From Herbidospora yilanensis (GTDB lineage Bacteria > Actinomycetota > Actinomycetes > Streptosporangiales > Streptosporangiaceae), in NCBI RefSeq assembly GCF_001570565.1, contig NZ_BBXE01000035.1:1-64000 (forward strand): DNA of 64,000 nucleotides, read 5' to 3'. The position numbers were made by a program, and so were the translations under genes. The notes below the pieces were generated by a model, which was not told the origin of the DNA, ran no database searches, and saw only the letters and a program-made list of their open reading frames with translations. Of the stretch, positions 5,543 through 38,494 are shown piece by piece. Position 1 is the stretch's first letter. Every line of letters begins with the position of its first letter.

Positions 5543-6453
5543 CTCAGCCAACCGGCCGCGTGCTCCAGCAGTTCCCGCAGGTCTTCGACGGCCTCGCCGG
5601 TCCACACGACCGTCCCGGCGGCCACCAGGATCGGCAGGAGGGCGGGCAGCGCGGACCTCCGCCGCGCCGGAGCCAGCAGCGCGGCGACCCGCCGGGGCAC
5701 CGCGCCCGCCGCCGCGTGCAGCGTGCCCGGGGTGCGCCCCAGCCCGGGACGGCCCGCCGCCACCAGCGCGGCCTGGCCCACGGCCCGCGCCACCAGCCGC
5801 CGGTCGCCCACCTCGGCCGCCGCCCGCTCGTCGGCCGCCCGTTCCACCAGGAAGCCGACCTGGGCGCTCACCCGGCGCAGCGCCGGATGCGCGGCCCCGG
5901 CCAGCTCCGCGAGCCGCACCAGGCGGTGGTGCGCGCCGTCGAGGTGGGCGCGCTCGTGGGCGAGCAGCGCGGCGTACTGCCGGTCGGTCAGCGCGTCGCG
6001 CATGCCGCGGGTGACCACGACCCAGCCGGGCCGTCCGGGCACCGCGAAGGCCGTCACGGCGGCGTCGTCGACGAGCAGGACGTCGCCGTCGGGGCGTGGG
6101 AACGACCGTCCGGCGCGCAGGTCGCGGCGGTGCCGCCGGTGCGTCCACCCGACCGCGGCGACCACGGCCGCCAGCAGCGGCACCGACCCCCACGACGCCC
6201 ACGGCACGTCGGCGAGGTCGGCCCGGACGATCCGGTCGGACCACCCCATCAGATGGGCCACCACGGGGAGTTCGGCGAGCGCGTGGAGGGCGAACACCAG
6301 CAGGTTCGCGGTCCCGGCCACCGCGACGGCCACGGCCGTCCAGGCCAGCACCCGCGCGGCCAGCGCGGGCGCGAGCCGCCCCGCGACGAGGGCGGCGACG
6401 AGCACGGCGAGCGGCGGCACGACCACCACCGAGACCACGAAGTGATCGAACAT
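5539..6453 (-). CDS. M56-family (BlaR1-like) membrane metallopeptidase
   Basis: 304 residues. Three N-terminal membrane segments and a C-terminal one frame a cytoplasmic zinc-peptidase domain with the HExxH motif (HERAH, near residue 167) and a downstream ERAADERAA stretch that supplies the third ligand. The penicillin-sensor domain of BlaR1 is absent. It is divergent from a BlaI-type repressor, the standard actinobacterial arrangement in which the peptidase inactivates the repressor. The signal sensed is unknown. Its stop codon lies inside the efeU iron box. Confidence 0.88.
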   Translation of the reverse strand: MFDHFVVSVVVVPPLAVLVAALVAGRLAPALAARVLAWTAVAVAVAGTANLLVFALHALAELPVVAHLMGWSDRIVRADLADVPWASWGSVPLLAAVVAAVGWTHRRHRRDLRAGRSFPRPDGDVLLVDDAAVTAFAVPGRPGWVVVTRGMRDALTDRQYAALLAHERAHLDGAHHRLVRLAELAGAAHPALRRVSAQVGFLVERAADERAAAEVGDRRLVARAVGQAALVAAGRPGLGRTPGTLHAAAGAVPRRVAALLAPARRRSALPALLPILVAAGTVVWTGEAVEDLRELLEHAAGWLS

Positions 6454-30982: not shown

Positions 30983-32233
30983 CTATTCCGCCGGCAGCGC
31001 CTCGCGGAGGGCCGCGACCGCGGCGGTCTCGGCCCGGTGGATCTCGGCGAGCCGCTCGCCCAGCGCGGGGAAGAAGCCGGGCGCAGGCGGCGTCGCCTCC
31101 TCCTTCAGCGCCCACAGTTCCGCGGCCGCCGCCTCGGCGTCCGCCGTCCCCGCCGAGCCCTCGGCCACGGCGGCGCGGACGGCCACCGTGAGTTCGCGCA
31201 GCCGCCGGTTCTCCGCCTCCGGCAGCGCCGCCTCGGCGAAGTCGTGCCACAGGCCGTGAACGCGCCGGAACTCGGCCGCCGGTCCGCCCAGTGGCAGGCC
31301 GAGCAGGCCGGCCGCCTCGTCGAGGCCGTCGGCGAACAGGTCGCGGTGGTTGCCGCCGTCGGTGCCGACCGGTTCGACGGCCTCCCAGATCGACAACATC
31401 GCGCCCGCCAGGCCGCGGCCGTCGGCGAACACCTTCGGCCAGCCCTTCGCCGCCGATCCGTCGGCGACGGTCCGGCTCCACTTGCGCCAGGCCGGCAACG
31501 AGAACGAGTCGGAGGACCCGCTGAGGTGGGCGGCGCAGTCGCGCAACCCGGCCAGCACCGCCTCCTCCAGCCGGGGCCGGGCGGGGGTGACGGCGTGCAG
31601 CATGTTCTTGTACGACCCCACCCGCGCCCGCGCCGCGTCGAGCCGGGCCCGGTCGACGCGCAGCGGCGCGAGGTTGCGGTCGTCGACGTGGACGGCGTCG
31701 CCGTCCTCCCGGTAGACCACGACCGGATGCCCGCCCCGGCCGTCGAGGGCGGCGGGGGCGTGCCAGTAGCCGACGTGGTAGAGGTCGGGCAGCACCACGC
31801 ACGCCCGGCCCGCCGCCAATTCGGCCGACAACCGCGCCGACGCGCCCTTCGCGCCGCCGGTGGTGTGGACGTCGAACGGCACCCCGAGCCGGGTCAGCGT
31901 GGTGTCCATCCACCTCTGCGGGTACTGCCAGCGGTTGCGGAACCCCAGCACGACGGTGGCCGACCCGTGGCGCTTGAACTCCCAGAGGATGTAGCCCGCG
32001 CCGAGCCCTCCCCCGGCCACGTAGACGAGCGGCTCACTGACGGGGAACCCGCCGTTGCGCAGGATGTTGGCCACCGCCGCCGAGGCCGAGTGGCGGCCGC
32101 CGTGGAGGGTCCACCCGTGGTCGGTCTGCGGGCCCGCCGCGCCCGCGACGTGCATGCGTGCGGTGGTGTAGCTCTCGCCCGTCTTGGCCATGCGCGCCCG
32201 GATGCGCGCCTTGAGCTGCTTCTTGCCGGTCAT
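30983..32233 (-). CDS. BtrH-like protein (BtrH N-terminal + DUF4872-type)
   Basis: 416 residues from ATG 32233, which has GGAG six bases upstream. A short basic leader with QLKARIRARMAKTGESYTTA (residues 6-25) precedes the BtrH-like papain fold: LHGGRHSASAAVANILRNGG, GGGLGAGYILWEF, LPDLYHVGYW, GHPVVVYRED. In BtrH-type proteins a Cys follows the His of the first block; here Ser49 takes that place. The second half is a helical DUF4872-like domain. BtrH itself is a peptide acyltransferase of butirosin synthesis. The altered nucleophile means the activity is uncertain. Confidence 0.75.
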   Translation of the reverse strand: MTGKKQLKARIRARMAKTGESYTTARMHVAGAAGPQTDHGWTLHGGRHSASAAVANILRNGGFPVSEPLVYVAGGGLGAGYILWEFKRHGSATVVLGFRNRWQYPQRWMDTTLTRLGVPFDVHTTGGAKGASARLSAELAAGRACVVLPDLYHVGYWHAPAALDGRGGHPVVVYREDGDAVHVDDRNLAPLRVDRARLDAARARVGSYKNMLHAVTPARPRLEEAVLAGLRDCAAHLSGSSDSFSLPAWRKWSRTVADGSAAKGWPKVFADGRGLAGAMLSIWEAVEPVGTDGGNHRDLFADGLDEAAGLLGLPLGGPAAEFRRVHGLWHDFAEAALPEAENRRLRELTVAVRAAVAEGSAGTADAEAAAAELWALKEEATPPAPGFFPALGERLAEIHRAETAAVAALREALPAE

Positions 32234-32393
32234 GACGACTCCATCGCGGCACACGCGGACACCCGGTCCACGCCCGCGATGTTCGCTCCGGCCGCTTCGG
32301 TTGTCGCCGTGCACGGATCCGCCGCGCTCCAGAGGCGATGAGGTCCCCTTTGCCTCCGCGTGCGGCGAGCCGCGTGGAGACCCGCTGAAGGAG

Positions 32394-32423
32394 GTTCGGC
32401 GGTGGAGCCCGCCACCGCCGAAC
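32394..32423 (-). terminator. Hairpin terminator after the NlpC/P60-like gene
   Basis: GTTCGGCGGTGG pairs perfectly with CCACCGCCGAAC around a six-base loop (twelve pairs). It starts directly after the TAA stop at 32424-32426 on the - strand. The remaining 160 bases to the BtrH-like start show nothing else. Confidence 0.75.
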
Positions 32424-33050
32424 TTACACCTTCGGGATGTCGACCGCGATCTCGTCGCCGAGCCGGTATCCGGTGGCCAGGTCGAGCCGGTCGCCGCTCC
32501 AGAAGCGCCCCGGGTCGTACCAGTTGGCCGCCTTCCGGTTGGTCAGCAGGCCCATCGCCTCGTAGGTCACCGCCACCACCTCGGCGCAGTAGGCCGACTC
32601 CAGGGCCATGTCGCGGGCGCGCCGCGACGGCAGCCGCCCGCGCAGCCAGCGGCCGGCCAGGTGGGCGGTCGAGGGGAACGGGGTGCCGTCGAGGCGGGCG
32701 ATCGTCTTGAGGACGGCGTCTTCCATCTCGCGGGTCACGTCGGGCTGGAGCTGGCGCAGCCAGCCGCGCTGGCCGTACTTGTTCGACCAGGTCACCACGG
32801 CCTCGCGCAGGTCGTGGAGCTGCACGCCGCGCTGGCGGGTGCCGGTCCACATGTCGGTGAGGGACCGGCCCAGCTCGGCGTGCCACATCAGCGGCGGCAG
32901 GTCTTCGATCACGACCGACATGCCGACGTGGTTGACCGGGCTGTTGGTCGTCATCTGGATCGCCCGGTCGGGGACCGAACGGCCGCGGAACACCCAGACG
33001 TCACCGGTCCGGGTCTGGGTCAGCGCTTCGTCGAGGGTGATGCCGCTCAT
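32424..33050 (-). CDS. Permuted NlpC/P60-superfamily protein (YiiX/LRAT-like)
   Basis: 208 residues, no signal peptide. The permuted papain-like pattern is visible: a strand with GDVWVFRG, the catalytic His in NHVGMSVV (His41), and the catalytic Cys in SAYCAEVVAVTYEAMGL (Cys155), with His before Cys as in YiiX/YebB/LRAT proteins. Such enzymes hydrolyse amides or thioesters, or transfer acyl groups. It is divergent from a 56-residue membrane protein with 17 bases between starts. The substrate is unknown. Confidence 0.75.
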   Translation of the reverse strand: MSGITLDEALTQTRTGDVWVFRGRSVPDRAIQMTTNSPVNHVGMSVVIEDLPPLMWHAELGRSLTDMWTGTRQRGVQLHDLREAVVTWSNKYGQRGWLRQLQPDVTREMEDAVLKTIARLDGTPFPSTAHLAGRWLRGRLPSRRARDMALESAYCAEVVAVTYEAMGLLTNRKAANWYDPGRFWSGDRLDLATGYRLGDEIAVDIPKV

Positions 33051-33067: not shown

Positions 33068-33238
33068 ATGCGCTGGTGGAAAATCCTGGGCCTGGCCGCG
33101 TTCGCGGGCGTCGCGGCGACCGGAGTGGTGGCGGTCCGCGCCGAACGGCGTCGCCGGGCCTACACCCCCGAGGAGATCCGCGACCGGCTCCGCGAACGGA
33201 CGGCCGAGATCTCCTCGCAGGGCACGCCTAACCCCTGA
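33068..33238 (+). CDS. Small single-span membrane protein (56 residues)
   Basis: MRWWKILGLAAFAGVAATGV is a clear N-terminal anchor, followed by an Arg-rich stretch and a charged helix with YTPEEIRDRLRERTAEI. This pattern is common in short actinobacterial hypothetical proteins. ATG 33068, stop TGA 33236-33238. It overlaps the 3' end of speE by 11 bases. Start of the permuted NlpC/P60 gene is 17 bases away on the other strand. No SD is visible; a very short leader is likely. Confidence 0.6.
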   Translation: MRWWKILGLAAFAGVAATGVVAVRAERRRRAYTPEEIRDRLRERTAEISSQGTPNP

Positions 33239-34085
33239 CCGATCGGGGCGGCACGGTGTTGCCGGTCAGCGCCGCGTCGTCGATCGAGACGGGGCGGTAG
33301 GGCAGGGTCGCGAGCCGGCGCCGCATCTGGCCGAGGGTGTCGGCGAGGGTGTCGGCGCGGGCGCTGACGAACGCCCACTCGTGCTCGTCGGAGCCGTAGT
33401 AGACGACCGACGGGAACGCCCGGGTGAAACGCTCCCAGGAGCGGCGCAGCGTGTGGTTGCGCCACAGGGTCATGCATCCGGCCTGGGTCGACACGACCCC
33501 GCCGGGGGCCAGCGCCTTGCGGCACATCTCCAGGAACGCGGCGCCGTAGAGGCGGTCGTGCTGGGCGTCTCCCTCGGGGCTCTCGTCGGGCAGGTCGACG
33601 ACGATGACGTCGTAGCCGGCGGCCGACTCCAGGAAGGCGTAGCCGTCTTCGTAACGCATGGTGATCGGGCCGGTGCCCCGCTCGGCGGCGGTGAGCTCGG
33701 CGACGGTGTAGCCGTAGGGCAGGTGGTCGGCGCAGATCCGGACCGCCCGCCGGTCGATGTCGACGTGGTCGACGACCCGGGCGCCCGCCGCGACGAGGAG
33801 CTGGCAGGCCACGCCCTCGCTCGACCCGATGACCAGGCAGCGGTCGAGCCGGTCGGCGAGCAGGGCCGGGGGGATGACCAGGGCCTCGTGGTAGACGAGC
33901 TGGCTGAACTCGGTCGACTGGCGCTCGCCGCCGCAGAACAGGCTCGCGCCCTGCTCTGTGACGGCGACCAGGACGTCTTGGAAGGGGGTCGTCTCCTCGT
34001 GGAGCACGGCGTCGACCCGCCACAGGCGGCGCATGCCGCCGGTCGTCGGCTCATCGATCCACAGGTGACCGTCGTGTTCGATCAA
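33228..34085 (-). CDS. speE: SpeE-like polyamine aminopropyltransferase
   Basis: 285 residues. It has the aminopropyltransferase layout: an N-terminal beta domain with TEFSQLVYHEALVIPP, the SAM-type Rossmann fold, DIDRRAVRICADHL, EDGYAFLES, VVDLPDES (catalytic Asp region) and a GVVSTQAG loop. The family motif GGGDG is replaced by GSSEG (near residue 98), so cofactor or substrate preference could differ. Expected reaction: putrescine plus decarboxylated SAM to spermidine. The start overlaps speD by four bases (ATGA). Confidence 0.85.
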   Translation of the reverse strand: MIEHDGHLWIDEPTTGGMRRLWRVDAVLHEETTPFQDVLVAVTEQGASLFCGGERQSTEFSQLVYHEALVIPPALLADRLDRCLVIGSSEGVACQLLVAAGARVVDHVDIDRRAVRICADHLPYGYTVAELTAAERGTGPITMRYEDGYAFLESAAGYDVIVVDLPDESPEGDAQHDRLYGAAFLEMCRKALAPGGVVSTQAGCMTLWRNHTLRRSWERFTRAFPSVVYYGSDEHEWAFVSARADTLADTLGQMRRRLATLPYRPVSIDDAALTGNTVPPRSVRG

Positions 34086-34462
34086 AGGGTTGCCTCCACT
34101 CGCTGACCGCCTCTCCCGATGATCCTCGTCGTCACCCGGCCGGGTGTCAGCTCGGCGGCCATGACGCTCATGGCCTTGCGGGGGTCGGCCCGGTCACCGC
34201 AGGTGAAGACGTCGACGAAGGCGGCGCGGTGCTGGGGGTAGGTGTGGAGCGAGGCGTGCGACTCGGCCAGCAGGGTCAGCACGGTGACCCCCTGGGGGAC
34301 GAACCGGTGGGAGACCACCTCCATGACGGTCGCCCCCGCTTCCTTCATGGCCCTGGGCAGCAGCGTGCGCAGCAGGGGTTCGTCGTCGAGGAGCGCCGGG
34401 TCGGCGTCCTCGAACTCGACGATGACGTGGATGCCGCTGAACCGGCCGATCTGCGTGGTCAT
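34082..34462 (-). CDS. speD: S-adenosylmethionine decarboxylase proenzyme
   Basis: 126 residues, the size of the short prokaryotic class. The processing site is LLAESHASLHTYP: cleavage between Glu67 and Ser68 would make the pyruvoyl group. His73 and Cys88 (VFTCGD) match the processing and proton-donor residues. It supplies decarboxylated SAM to SpeE. ATG 34462 shares one base with the stop of the upstream decarboxylase (TGATG), so all three genes are translated as a unit. Confidence 0.95.
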   Translation of the reverse strand: MTTQIGRFSGIHVIVEFEDADPALLDDEPLLRTLLPRAMKEAGATVMEVVSHRFVPQGVTVLTLLAESHASLHTYPQHRAAFVDVFTCGDRADPRKAMSVMAAELTPGRVTTRIIGRGGQRVEATL

Positions 34463-35649
34463 CAGCCCGGCACACAGAAGGTCGGCAGCGCCGGCAGGCC
34501 GTTGACCGCCGCGCAGGAGTAGCTGGAGGTGTACGCCCCGGCGTCCATGATCTCGATGGGGTCGCCGGGGGCGAGCGAGAGGGGCATGGCGTAGTCGGTG
34601 TGCTGGTAGAGCACGTCGTCGCCGTCGCTGGTCGGCCCGGCCAGCACGACCGGCCCGTCGGGGCCGAACCCGGCGGGGGTGTGGATGCGGTAGGCGATGG
34701 TGTCGTTCTCGGTCTCGACCAGGCCGTTGTAGCGGCCGACGTCGAGGAACACCCAGCGGCGCGGGTCGGCGGGCACGCCGCCGCGGACCGCCACGACCTC
34801 GGCGCGGATCATGCCAGACGGGCCGACGAGGGATCGGCCCGGCTCGATGACCAGTCGCGGACGGTCGCGGGGTTCGAAGTGGCGGGCGAGCGACAGGTCG
34901 ACCGCGCGGGCGAACTCCTCGGAGGAGGCCGACGGTTCGCGGTAGGAGATCGGGAACCCCCCGCCGATGTCGATGACGGGCAGCCGCACGCCCTCGGGTT
35001 CGAGCATCTTGGCGATCTTCGCGGCGGCGGCGATGCCGGCGTCCCAGGCGGCGAGGTTGCGCTGCTGGGAGCCGACGTGGAACGTGACGCCCTGGGGTCG
35101 CAGGCCCCGGTCGGCGGCCTCGGCGAGCATCTCGGGCGCCGCCTCCTCGGGGCAGCCGAACTTGGCCCCGAACGGCATCGCGGCGGCCGGCGGGGTCACC
35201 TGGATGCGGCAGAACACCTTCGACCCGGGCGCCTCGACGATGATGTTGCGCAGGTCGCCGGGGTTGTCGAAGGCGAAGGTCCGCACTCCGCGCTCGTAGG
35301 CGGCGGCCACGTCGGAGCGCTTCTTCACCGGGTTGCTGAACGACAGCCGGGACGCGGGCACCCCGCGCGCCAGGCAGAGCTCGATCTCGGCGAGGCTGGC
35401 GACGTCGAAGCCGGCGCCTAACCGGGCGAGGGTGGTGATGACGCCGGGTGCGGCGTTGGCCTTGACCGCGTAGAGGATCTCGGCGCCGATGAACGCGAGG
35501 CTCATGGTCCGGTAGGTCGATTCGAGCGTCGGCAGATCGATGAGCAGGCAGGGACTGGGCGTCTCGTGACGGTCGGCGAAGGCGCGCAGCCGCACTGCGG
35601 CCCCCTCCATCGCGCCCTCGACACGTCGAGTGAGAGTCAGGTCTGGCAC
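34462..35649 (-). CDS. Type III PLP decarboxylase (ornithine/lysine decarboxylase-like)
   Basis: 395 residues, alanine-racemase fold. PLP Lys in YAVKANAAP (near residue 63), HVGSQQ, the phosphate loop GGGFPISY, EPGRSLVG, and the C-terminal GAYTSSYS are present. The active-site block is GPTSDGDDVL: Ser341 replaces the Cys of the usual GPTCDSxD. In ornithine decarboxylase that Cys governs product release. Next to speD and speE the likely product is putrescine (or cadaverine). It starts with GTG 35649 behind AAGGGGGAG. Confidence 0.88.
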   Translation of the reverse strand: MPDLTLTRRVEGAMEGAAVRLRAFADRHETPSPCLLIDLPTLESTYRTMSLAFIGAEILYAVKANAAPGVITTLARLGAGFDVASLAEIELCLARGVPASRLSFSNPVKKRSDVAAAYERGVRTFAFDNPGDLRNIIVEAPGSKVFCRIQVTPPAAAMPFGAKFGCPEEAAPEMLAEAADRGLRPQGVTFHVGSQQRNLAAWDAGIAAAAKIAKMLEPEGVRLPVIDIGGGFPISYREPSASSEEFARAVDLSLARHFEPRDRPRLVIEPGRSLVGPSGMIRAEVVAVRGGVPADPRRWVFLDVGRYNGLVETENDTIAYRIHTPAGFGPDGPVVLAGPTSDGDDVLYQHTDYAMPLSLAPGDPIEIMDAGAYTSSYSCAAVNGLPALPTFCVPG

Positions 35650-35659
35650 GGCTCCCCCT

Positions 35660-35691
35660 TACTTTCCGTGGTATATCGCCCACCGAAAGTA
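35660..35691 (-). promoter_or_regulatory. Inverted repeat in the leader of the polyamine operon
   Basis: TACTTTCCGTGG and CCACCGAAAGTA are inverted with one mismatch (11 of 12 pairs) around TATATCGC. It lies directly upstream of the AAGGGGGAG ribosome site of the decarboxylase gene. It may be a repressor operator or an RNA hairpin that controls translation. Confidence 0.6.
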
Positions 35692-35778
35692 GTCACACGG
35701 GAACCCCGATGACCATAACCTGAAGGTGACACGGACCTTACTTAGCGAATTGATAGAGCCCGGCGGTTTTAACTCTGT

Positions 35779-35809
35779 GACGGGAAGGGCAGAAGAGAAG
35801 TTTCCCGTC
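35779..35809 (-). terminator. Possible hairpin terminator after the MOSC fusion gene
   Basis: GACGGGAA pairs with TTCCCGTC across a 15-base loop, 33 bases past the MOSC gene stop on the - strand. The stem is short and the loop large, so the call is weak. The rest of the 192-base gap (35650-35841) is AT-richer than its surroundings and should hold the polyamine-operon promoter. Confidence 0.35.
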
Positions 35810-35841
35810 CGCCCATATGTGGATATTTCACCAATCGTCCG

Positions 35842-37551
35842 CTATAGATCCAGGACGACGTCCTCGCGCACCGGCGCCGAGCAGCAGATGAGCGCGTCCC
35901 CGGCCGCCGGCGGCTCCAGCGGCTCGGTCCGATAGCGGACCTCACCCGCCAGCAGCCCCGTCACGCAGGTGTGGCACACCCCCGTCCGGCACGACCACCG
36001 CACCGGCACGTCGCACGCCTCGGCCAGTTCGAGGAGACTGCCGTACTCCTCGCCCCACCGGACGGTCAGCCCGCTGCGCGCGAAGGTGACCTCCGGGCCG
36101 GTCCCCCGGGACGCCGGCGGATGCGGCCGGACGTGCCGCGCGTCCACCACACCGGGGTTGACAGCGGCCAGTGTGCCGAACAGTTCGGTGTGCACCCGCG
36201 CGGCCGGGAGCCCCGCGCCGGCCAGCGCGTCGGCCATGGCGCCCATGAAGCCGGCGGGCCCGCATATATAGGCGTCGGTGTCGGGCGTGAGCCCGAGTCC
36301 GGCCAGGCCGGCGGCGGTCGGGCGGCCGGTCTCGGCGTGCGGCGGCAGCGGTTCGCCGGGTTCGGGGGCGGTGAAGAAGACCTTCCACCGGGCGCCGGGG
36401 ATGCGGTCGAGCAGTTCGTGCACCTCGTCGGCGAACACCTGCGTCCTGACAGCGCGTGTCACGTGCAGCCACCAGACGGGCCGTTCGGCGCCCGTCTCGG
36501 CCAGGGTGTGGAGCATCGCCAGCACGGGGGTGATGCCGATCCCGGCCGAGATCAGCGCGACCGGTGAGGAGGCGTCGGCCATCGTGAAGTCGCCCCGGGG
36601 CGCGGCCACCTCCAGCGCGTCGCCCTCGGCGACCCGGGAGTGCAGGTATCCACTGACCTCGCCGCCGGGTTCGTGCTTGACGGTGATTCGATAGCCGGAG
36701 GATCCAAGCGACAACGAGTAGCTGCGCACCGAGCCGCCGGGCACCCGTACCGTCAGATACTGGCCCGGCAGGGCCACCGGCAGCGCCGAACCGTCGCCGG
36801 GGGCGAGATAGAAGGAGACGGTGTCCGCACTCTCCCGGCGCACCCGCGTGACGGCGAGCGGCCGGAACCCCGGCCACGCGGGCCGGGCGAGGGGGGCGGC
36901 GGTGAGCAGGTCCCGGAACGAGCCCTGCCAGCCGGGGCTCAGCGCCGGGTTGTCCAGCGCGGCCCGCAACCGGGCGGGGTCGCGCGGGCCGGGGAGGTAG
37001 AGCAGAGCGTCGGCCTCGGCGACCGAGACCTCCCCCGCGCCGACCGACAGGCGCTCGATGTCGTCTCCGGCCTCCACGAACCCCTCGGTGATCACCCGCA
37101 GGTAGAACCCGGGCCGCCGGTGCCCGACGAGCAGCGAGGCCATCTCGGGCACGCCCATCCGCAACCCCACCCGGAAACAGGTGACGCGCGGCTGGGTGAC
37201 CTCGAAGACGGCACCGCCGATCCGGTAGCGGTCGCCGATGCGGACCTCGTCGTCGGGCAGCCCGTCGACGGTGAGGTTCTCGCCGAACTGGCCGTAGGTG
37301 AGGTCGTCGCGGCCGAGGTGACGGCTCCAGTGGGCGTAGGAGTCGATCTGGTAGACCAGCACGGCGCGCTGCTCACCCCCGTGCCCCGCCAGGTCGCCCT
37401 GCCCGTCGCCGTCGATGTTGAGCCGCCGCACCCGCCGCGGCCCCTCGACGCTGCTCTTCCAGATGCCCGTGTGGACGGTGCGGCCCTCCCAGGGCACGTC
37501 CTTGGGCAGGCCCACGTTGACCGACAGCAGTTTTCCGACGATCTCCCCCAT
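35842..37551 (-). CDS. MOSC domain-FAD/NAD reductase-[2Fe-2S] ferredoxin fusion
   Basis: 569 residues in three parts. Residues 1-220: MOSC (YiiM-type) with 3-alpha domain, including QPRVTCFRVGLRMG with the conserved Cys125. Residues 230-460: ferredoxin-NADP reductase fold with RSYSLS (FAD) and ISAGIGITPVLAML (NAD). Residues 490-569: plant-type ferredoxin with Cys521, Cys526, Cys529 and Cys557. YiiM/MOSC proteins carry the molybdenum cofactor and reduce N-hydroxylated compounds; here the electron chain is on the same chain. The pirin gene follows upstream by 19 bases. Confidence 0.93.
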   Translation of the reverse strand: MGEIVGKLLSVNVGLPKDVPWEGRTVHTGIWKSSVEGPRRVRRLNIDGDGQGDLAGHGGEQRAVLVYQIDSYAHWSRHLGRDDLTYGQFGENLTVDGLPDDEVRIGDRYRIGGAVFEVTQPRVTCFRVGLRMGVPEMASLLVGHRRPGFYLRVITEGFVEAGDDIERLSVGAGEVSVAEADALLYLPGPRDPARLRAALDNPALSPGWQGSFRDLLTAAPLARPAWPGFRPLAVTRVRRESADTVSFYLAPGDGSALPVALPGQYLTVRVPGGSVRSYSLSLGSSGYRITVKHEPGGEVSGYLHSRVAEGDALEVAAPRGDFTMADASSPVALISAGIGITPVLAMLHTLAETGAERPVWWLHVTRAVRTQVFADEVHELLDRIPGARWKVFFTAPEPGEPLPPHAETGRPTAAGLAGLGLTPDTDAYICGPAGFMGAMADALAGAGLPAARVHTELFGTLAAVNPGVVDARHVRPHPPASRGTGPEVTFARSGLTVRWGEEYGSLLELAEACDVPVRWSCRTGVCHTCVTGLLAGEVRYRTEPLEPPAAGDALICCSAPVREDVVLDL

Positions 37552-37570
37552 ACCGGGAGACCTACCCAGC

Positions 37571-38494
37571 TCAGCGCACGCGGCCCCGCGGCTTCAGCCG
37601 CAGGGAGGGCAGTTCGGGGGCGCGGAGCGGGTCGCCGTCGTAGCCGGGCACCGGGCCGAGGGCGCCCTCGCCCCAGGAGCGGCGGAACTCGACGATCTCG
37701 TCGTGCGAGCGGCCGACGAAGTTCCACCACATGACGATGCGCTCCTCGAAGGGCTCGCCGCCGAGCAGCAGCAGGCGGGCGTCGCCGCCGAGGTCCACCG
37801 AGGAGCGGCCCGCGCCCAGGTAGAGCAGCGGCCCCGGCTCCAGCGTCGTCCCGGCGACCTGCGCGGTCCCCGACAACACGAGCGCGGCGTACTCCCAGGC
37901 GGGCTTCAGCGGCAGCCGCGACGGCGCGGACACCACGATCTCGGCCCCCGCGATGGGCGTGTGCGCGGTGGCGGGCGAGGTCAGCCCGGCCAGCTCCCCC
38001 AGGAGCACGGTCACCGAGCAACCGGGCTCGGTGAGCTCGGGCAGGTCGGGGTGGTGCTCGAAGGCGGGGGCGGTGTGCCGGGCGCTCTCGGGCAGCGCGA
38101 CCCAGAGCTGCGCGCCGTGCAGCCGCCCGTATTCGGACTCCTCGGAGTGGGCGATGCCGCGCCCGGCGGTCATCAGGTTGAGCTGCCCCGGTTTGATCAC
38201 CTGCTCGCTGCCGAGCGTGTCGCGGTGCAGCACCTCGCCCTCGACGAGCCAGCTCACCGTCTGCAACCCCGTGTGGGGATGGGGCGGCACCGTCATCGTG
38301 GCCGGTTCGGGCCCGTAGGCGTCGGCGAAGCACCACGCCCCGACCATCCGCCGCCCGGCGGTGGGCAGCGTGCGGGTGACCTTCATGCCGCGGGTCCCGC
38401 CCAGCACGACGTCACGGCCGGGCAGCAGCTCCGGTTCGCCCGCGCCCTCGCCGCCGCAGACGGCCTCCCGGGGGTCGCTTTCGAGGTTGCTCAT
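37571..38494 (-). CDS. Pirin-family bicupin protein
   Basis: 307 residues from ATG 38494. The N-terminal cupin carries the pirin metal site: PHPHTGLQTVSWLVEGEVLHRDTLG and GRGIAHSEESEY (His, His, His, Glu). The C-terminal cupin ends with FVGRSHDEIVEFRRSWGEG. Pirins act as quercetinase-type dioxygenases or redox-sensitive regulators. It lies upstream of the MOSC fusion gene on the same strand with a 19-base gap, so the two may be one operon of redox proteins. Confidence 0.93.
   Translation of the reverse strand: MSNLESDPREAVCGGEGAGEPELLPGRDVVLGGTRGMKVTRTLPTAGRRMVGAWCFADAYGPEPATMTVPPHPHTGLQTVSWLVEGEVLHRDTLGSEQVIKPGQLNLMTAGRGIAHSEESEYGRLHGAQLWVALPESARHTAPAFEHHPDLPELTEPGCSVTVLLGELAGLTSPATAHTPIAGAEIVVSAPSRLPLKPAWEYAALVLSGTAQVAGTTLEPGPLLYLGAGRSSVDLGGDARLLLLGGEPFEERIVMWWNFVGRSHDEIVEFRRSWGEGALGPVPGYDGDPLRAPELPSLRLKPRGRVR

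What the first reader, a model, noticed from the sequence alone, without database searches (positions are those of the whole stretch)
35660..35691. 12-base inverted repeat beside the polyamine operon ribosome site
Seen: 11 of 12 paired positions around TATATCGC, just before AAGGGGGAG and GTG. A polyamine-sensing RNA hairpin or a repressor site would both fit. No sequence like this is visible elsewhere in the window.
Basis: inference. Interest (0 to 1): 0.5.

Follow-up and report, generated by a model that had tools for sequence, protein, structure and literature searches.

The report
Conserved palindrome at spermidine operon start
Just before the genes that make spermidine, a soil bacterium carries a perfectly preserved mirror-image DNA sequence that is probably an on/off control site, though what it senses, and whether it works as DNA or RNA, is still unknown.

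Summary
The inverted repeat is real (35660-35691; 12+8+12, 11 of 12 paired). It ends on the base before the ribosome site AGGGGGAG of an ornithine-decarboxylase / AdoMet-decarboxylase / spermidine-synthase operon on the minus strand. It is unlikely by chance there: 3 of 2000 shuffles of the 192-bp gap gave as much. The genus is Herbidospora. All 7 held genomes have it letter for letter, once each. It lies in the longest invariant run of a 4.2-kb alignment. Nothing in it varies, so covariation cannot be tested. No Rfam family matches. The same genomes carry a second such decarboxylase operon whose leader shares only the left-arm motif TGACTACTYTCGG. That motif contains a TANNNT -10 hexamer (TACTTT/TACTCT). 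If it is the promoter, transcription starts inside the repeat and the dyad acts as a DNA operator over the -10 and start site. I favour that (0.42) over an RNA hairpin (0.27). Nothing here shows that it responds to polyamines. It is a lineage-specific regulatory site of an ordinary kind.

The parts
35660..35691 (-). Inverted repeat: left arm 35680-35691, spacer 35672-35679, right arm 35660-35671 (minus-strand sense)
   Evidence: Sequence; exact in 7 of 7 Herbidospora genomes, one copy each
35683..35695 (-). TGACTACTTTCGG, motif shared with the leader of the second ODC operon
   Evidence: Exact form of TGACTACTYTCGG only at the two ODC leaders of the own genome; invariant-column comparison, 1-5 of 3000 shuffles as high
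35686..35691 (-). Candidate -10 hexamer TACTTT (inferred)
   Evidence: TANNNT scan; a strict sigma-70 scan found none
35710..35715 (-). Candidate -35 hexamer TGGTCA, 18-base spacer (inferred)
   Evidence: 4 of 6 matches to TTGACA; 10 of 18 spacer positions vary, both hexamers invariant
35709..35746 (-). Second invariant block of the leader (-97 to -60)
   Evidence: 38-base invariant run in 7 genomes
35652..35659 (-). Ribosome site AGGGGGAG, directly after the right arm
   Evidence: Sequence; invariant in 7 genomes
34462..35649 (-). Ornithine/arginine-type PLP decarboxylase gene, GTG start (in-frame ATG at codon 14, 35608-35610)
   Evidence: Pfam Orn_Arg_deC_N 8.7e-53
34082..34459 (-). S-adenosylmethionine decarboxylase gene (speD)
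   Evidence: Pfam AdoMet_dc 2e-35
33228..34085 (-). Spermidine synthase gene (speE)
   Evidence: Pfam Spermine_synth 3.2e-15

Best explanation
The repeat is a DNA operator that overlaps the core promoter of the Herbidospora speC-speD-speE operon. The left arm begins with the -10 hexamer (TACTTT), so RNA polymerase would start about 7 bases further on, inside the repeat. A dimeric regulator, probably a repressor, that binds the two 12-base half-sites (centres 20 bp, two helical turns, apart) would then block initiation. The mRNA would carry a leader of about 30 bases with the ribosome site but without the left arm, so no full hairpin would form. Shown: the dyad, its invariance, the genes, the shared left-arm motif. 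Inferred: the promoter, the start site, the existence of a regulator, and the signal (polyamine level or otherwise).
For: Dyad locally unlikely by chance (3 of 2000 shuffles). 0 of 32 positions vary in 7 genomes against 42 of 160 in the rest of the gap; spacer and mismatch are as fixed as the arms, more like a sequence-specific site than a stem. The left arm lies in TGACTACTYTCGG, shared with the second ODC leader, and this holds the only TANNNT common to both leaders; in the window leader it has the best -35 (4 of 6, spacer 18) of three candidates. Variable positions concentrate in the presumed spacer (10 of 18). The second leader keeps the left-arm motif but not a matching right arm, and would-be pairings are broken in two species.
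Against: A strict promoter scan finds no promoter, and a 4-of-6 -35 over five spacings is weak. No regulator gene adjoins the operon among the neighbours I scanned. No second site exists at up to 3 mismatches, so no autoregulated repressor gene shows itself. Invariance extends past the dyad into the gene (37 of 40 first third-codon positions), which an operator alone does not explain.
Confidence: 0.42

Rival explanations
1. RNA hairpin: the operon is transcribed from further upstream (candidates TATGGT at -68, TAAGGT at -91, or read-through from the upstream same-strand gene), and an 11-pair hairpin ending one base before the ribosome site modulates translation initiation or mRNA decay, perhaps with a protein or ligand.
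For: The hairpin is in the predicted fold of the leader, abuts AGGGGGAG, and all 11 pairs are kept in 7 genomes. Single-copy cis elements are normal for RNA. Two upstream TANNNT sites exist.
Against: Folding energy is only about 1.2 sd below shuffles. No covariation, since nothing varies; the 8-base loop is as invariant as the stem. The ribosome site itself is not paired. The second leader has no conserved equivalent stem.
Confidence: 0.27
2. An invariant promoter and translation-start region in which the dyad has no role of its own.
For: Invariance runs from -46 to +19 and on into the gene, beyond the dyad; dyads of this size are frequent in the window overall.
Against: Local chance of the dyad is 3 of 2000, and conserved promoters rarely hold 32 invariant bases from -10 to the ribosome site (general knowledge).
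Confidence: 0.2
3. A larger structured RNA leader (riboswitch-like) shared by both ODC operons, with a GUCA/UGAC stem in front of the dyad.
For: Both leaders carry GTGTCA and TGACTACTYTCGG in the same order with very different spacing (7 versus 31 bases between GTCA and TGAC, read), which suits a stem with a variable loop; the pattern is found only in Herbidospora, twice in each of 7 of 345 genomes.
Against: One pair of that stem is broken in 2 of 6 distinct sequences and no pair covaries. The fold of the second leader is no better than shuffles (z 0.32). No Rfam match. Unmasked similarity of the two leaders is weak (184 of 2000 gapped, 117 of 2000 ungapped shuffles as good).
Confidence: 0.06

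Closest known systems
Palindromic repressor operators overlapping a bacterial promoter (general class)
   Same: Dyad with 20-bp centre spacing placed over a candidate -10 and start region
   Different: No protein, binding data or mapped promoter; only one site per genome; no adjacent regulator gene found
Spermidine riboswitch (variant SAM-I aptamer; PMC10853860, abstract and passages read)
   Same: Would control polyamine-synthesis genes in cis
   Different: That class keeps the four-stem SAM-I architecture and terminates transcription; here no SAM-I or other Rfam match and no terminator
speF leader control in Salmonella (PMC6386406, search listing only) and the E. coli SpeFL leader peptide (named from memory; one search shows only papers mentioning it)
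   Same: Cis control in front of an ornithine decarboxylase gene
   Different: No conserved separate leader peptide seen in the window operon; the second operon has a 14-codon frame overlapping its ATG, of unknown meaning
EpuRII and GlnR control of polyamine utilisation in Streptomyces coelicolor (PMC9397018, passages read)
   Same: Actinobacterial transcription control of polyamine genes
   Different: Those act on utilisation genes; no link to this site was tested

Membership tests
Spermidine / SAM-I riboswitch | SAM-I-like four-stem aptamer in the leader | tested here: not met
   No Rfam match at gathering and only an unrelated E=2 match up to E 10 in 35600-35850. The variant class itself is not known to me to have its own Rfam model.
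Spermidine / SAM-I riboswitch | Intrinsic terminator as expression platform | tested here: not met
   No terminator-like site in 34000-38000
Ligand-sensing RNA leader | Compensatory changes in the stem | tested here: inconclusive
   11 of 11 dyad pairs never vary in 7 sequences, 6 distinct
Ornithine-sensing leader peptide (speF type) | Separate, conserved leader ORF before the decarboxylase gene | tested here: inconclusive
   By eye a 7-codon ATG frame before the dyad changes its residues between species; no systematic leader-ORF search was made
Promoter-overlapping operator | Near-symmetric half-sites | tested here: met
   11 of 12 symmetric positions, exact in 7 of 7 genomes
Promoter-overlapping operator | Overlap with a functional promoter | tested here: inconclusive
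   TANNNT with a 4-of-6 -35; strict scan negative; no start-site data
Promoter-overlapping operator | A regulator that binds it | not testable with these tools
   Needs binding experiments; no adjacent regulator gene among those scanned

The most novel reading that the evidence does not exclude
Both spermidine operons of Herbidospora carry a shared, undescribed RNA leader element that senses a polyamine or precursor and controls translation, with the window's hairpin as its expression platform.
Probability: 0.06. Interest if true: 0.6.

Novelty: new member of a known kind. Interest (0 to 1): 0.25.

Why it matters
If right, it is the control site of a complete ornithine-to-spermidine operon in an actinomycete genus that carries that decarboxylase twice, so it is a handle for finding a polyamine-synthesis regulator in this group. 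Searches for Herbidospora with polyamine or with spermidine found no paper in the held library. As a type of element it is ordinary.

Tried and rejected
Rfam at gathering and permissive thresholds on the window and related leaders: no convincing family. Other copies of the dyad: none at up to 3 mismatches in the own genome or in the genus; a 10-8-10 form gave one weak extra site. A wider motif AGTAGTCAC / GTGTGACTACT: seen upstream of two distant ODC genes (L037, L140), but AGTGTGACTACT gave 3 matches in 79 class genomes against 20 for the reversed control (my sum), and one of the three own-genome matches to RAGTAGTCAYA is the end of a reading frame that looks like a histone-like HU gene (by eye), so I dropped it. 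Three single-mismatch copies of TGACTACTYTCGG in the own genome (against 8 in the control) were only read by eye. Palindrome GTCAAGNNNCTTGAC of the second leader: 2 sites in the own genome, no enrichment over the control. Conservation outside the genus: one search looked at 16 of the 80 loci (2 Herbidospora, 14 other actinobacteria), at 9 of 9 non-Herbidospora loci, and one search printed two more (L032, L033). No leader outside Herbidospora showed the motif in forward orientation. The other 64 loci were not examined. Pairings ACUACU/AGUAGU and GACU/AGUC in the second leader were dropped because L010 and L011 break one or both.

Full report
What is there. On the minus strand the sequence is TACTTTCGGTGG-GCGATATA-CCACGGAAAGTA, followed directly by AGGGGGAG-CC-GTG. 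The gene that starts there is a PLP-dependent ornithine/diaminopimelate/arginine-type decarboxylase. The next two genes are AdoMet decarboxylase and spermidine synthase (Pfam). They nearly touch or overlap, so they probably form an ornithine-to-spermidine operon (inference from order). The upstream same-strand gene, with MOSC and ferredoxin-reductase domains, ends 192 bases before the GTG.

Chance. Three of 2000 dinucleotide shuffles of the 192-base gap contain an equally good dyad. Across the whole window such dyads are common (31 hits; six shuffled windows 3-16 hits). So the place matters more than the dyad as such.

Which organism. Two of the six same-genus genomes have contigs with the lengths and coordinates of named Herbidospora records, H. 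daliensis and H. sakaeratensis. The ODC is found at 96-98% identity in the other six held genomes of the genus. Of 200 sampled family genomes nine have an ODC at E <= 1e-100, seven of them Herbidospora.

Conservation. In the seven genomes (89-95% identical over 4.2 kb) the stretch from -46 to +19 has no change at all; at 66 bases it is the longest such run in the alignment. A second invariant block runs from -97 to -60. 42 of 192 gap positions vary, none of them among the 32 of the repeat. The repeat occurs once per genome, without mismatch, in 7 of 7 genomes. The constraint also runs into the gene: 37 of the first 40 third codon positions are invariant against 0.70 on average, so it is not confined to the dyad. 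No pair of the stem varies, so covariation speaks neither for nor against.

A second operon. Each of the seven genomes has a second ODC at 67-68% identity. In H. daliensis (L034) it too is followed by AdoMet_dc and Spermine_synth genes; the genes downstream of the other six copies were not checked. Its leader lacks the dyad but shares TGACTACTYTCGG, which occurs exactly twice in the own genome, at these two leaders. GTGTCA-N5-35-TGACTACTYTCG gives two matches in each of the seven Herbidospora genomes and none in the other 338 genomes of the order, with one hit of the reversed control. These patterns were made after seeing the similarity. Tested on invariant columns only, 1-5 of 3000 shuffles score as high, though the next-best tile of the same locus scored 9 against 10. 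On single unmasked sequences 117-184 of 2000 shuffles do as well. The homology of the leaders is therefore likely but not certain.

DNA or RNA. TGACTACTYTCGG contains TACTTT or TACTCT, a TANNNT -10 hexamer. In the window operon it is the start of the left arm and has the best -35 (TGGTCA, 4 of 6, 18-base spacer) of three TANNNT candidates in the leader; in the second leader the -35 at the same place is poor (2-3 of 6). Variable positions concentrate in the window operon's presumed spacer (10 of 18). If this is the promoter, the transcript begins inside the repeat and cannot form the hairpin, and the dyad is an operator spanning the -10 and start site. Against it: a strict promoter scan finds nothing, no regulator gene adjoins among those I scanned, and there is no second site. 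For the RNA reading: the local fold is the hairpin and it abuts the ribosome site. Against it: the folding z-score is about -1.2, the loop is invariant too, and the shared left arm has no conserved partner in the second leader.

Comparison. A spermidine riboswitch class exists, a variant SAM-I aptamer that ends transcription early (PMC10853860, abstract and passages). Neither its parent aptamer nor a terminator is found here. Salmonella speF is controlled through a leader (PMC6386406, search listing only). In Streptomyces coelicolor EpuRII and GlnR act on polyamine utilisation genes (PMC9397018, passages). Library searches for Herbidospora with polyamine or spermidine returned no paper.

Verdict. 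A real, strongly conserved, genus-specific regulatory site of a spermidine operon, most likely a DNA operator at its promoter. Response to polyamines is unproven.

Noticed in passing
L034 5939-5983, and the same place in L009-L015: The second ODC gene is preceded by a 14-codon reading frame with its own GGAG that overlaps the ODC start (ATGA). In the window operon the matching 13 codons are in frame with the ODC (GTG start, ATG at codon 14), so the two operons differ in how the leader frame joins the enzyme.
   Followed up: partly
window 35530-35649: The first 40 codons of the window ODC have 37 invariant third positions in 7 genomes against 0.70 on average, a hint of constraint on the nucleic acid within the gene.
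   Followed up: partly
L034, frame ending at 5721: An MmyB-like helix-turn-helix regulator with ligand-binding domain lies just upstream of the second spermidine operon in H. daliensis; it could be a regulator candidate.
   Followed up: no
window 30983-33050: Downstream of speE on the same strand lie a 208-aa protein without Pfam match and a BtrH_N/DUF4872 protein, possibly using the polyamine product.
   Followed up: no
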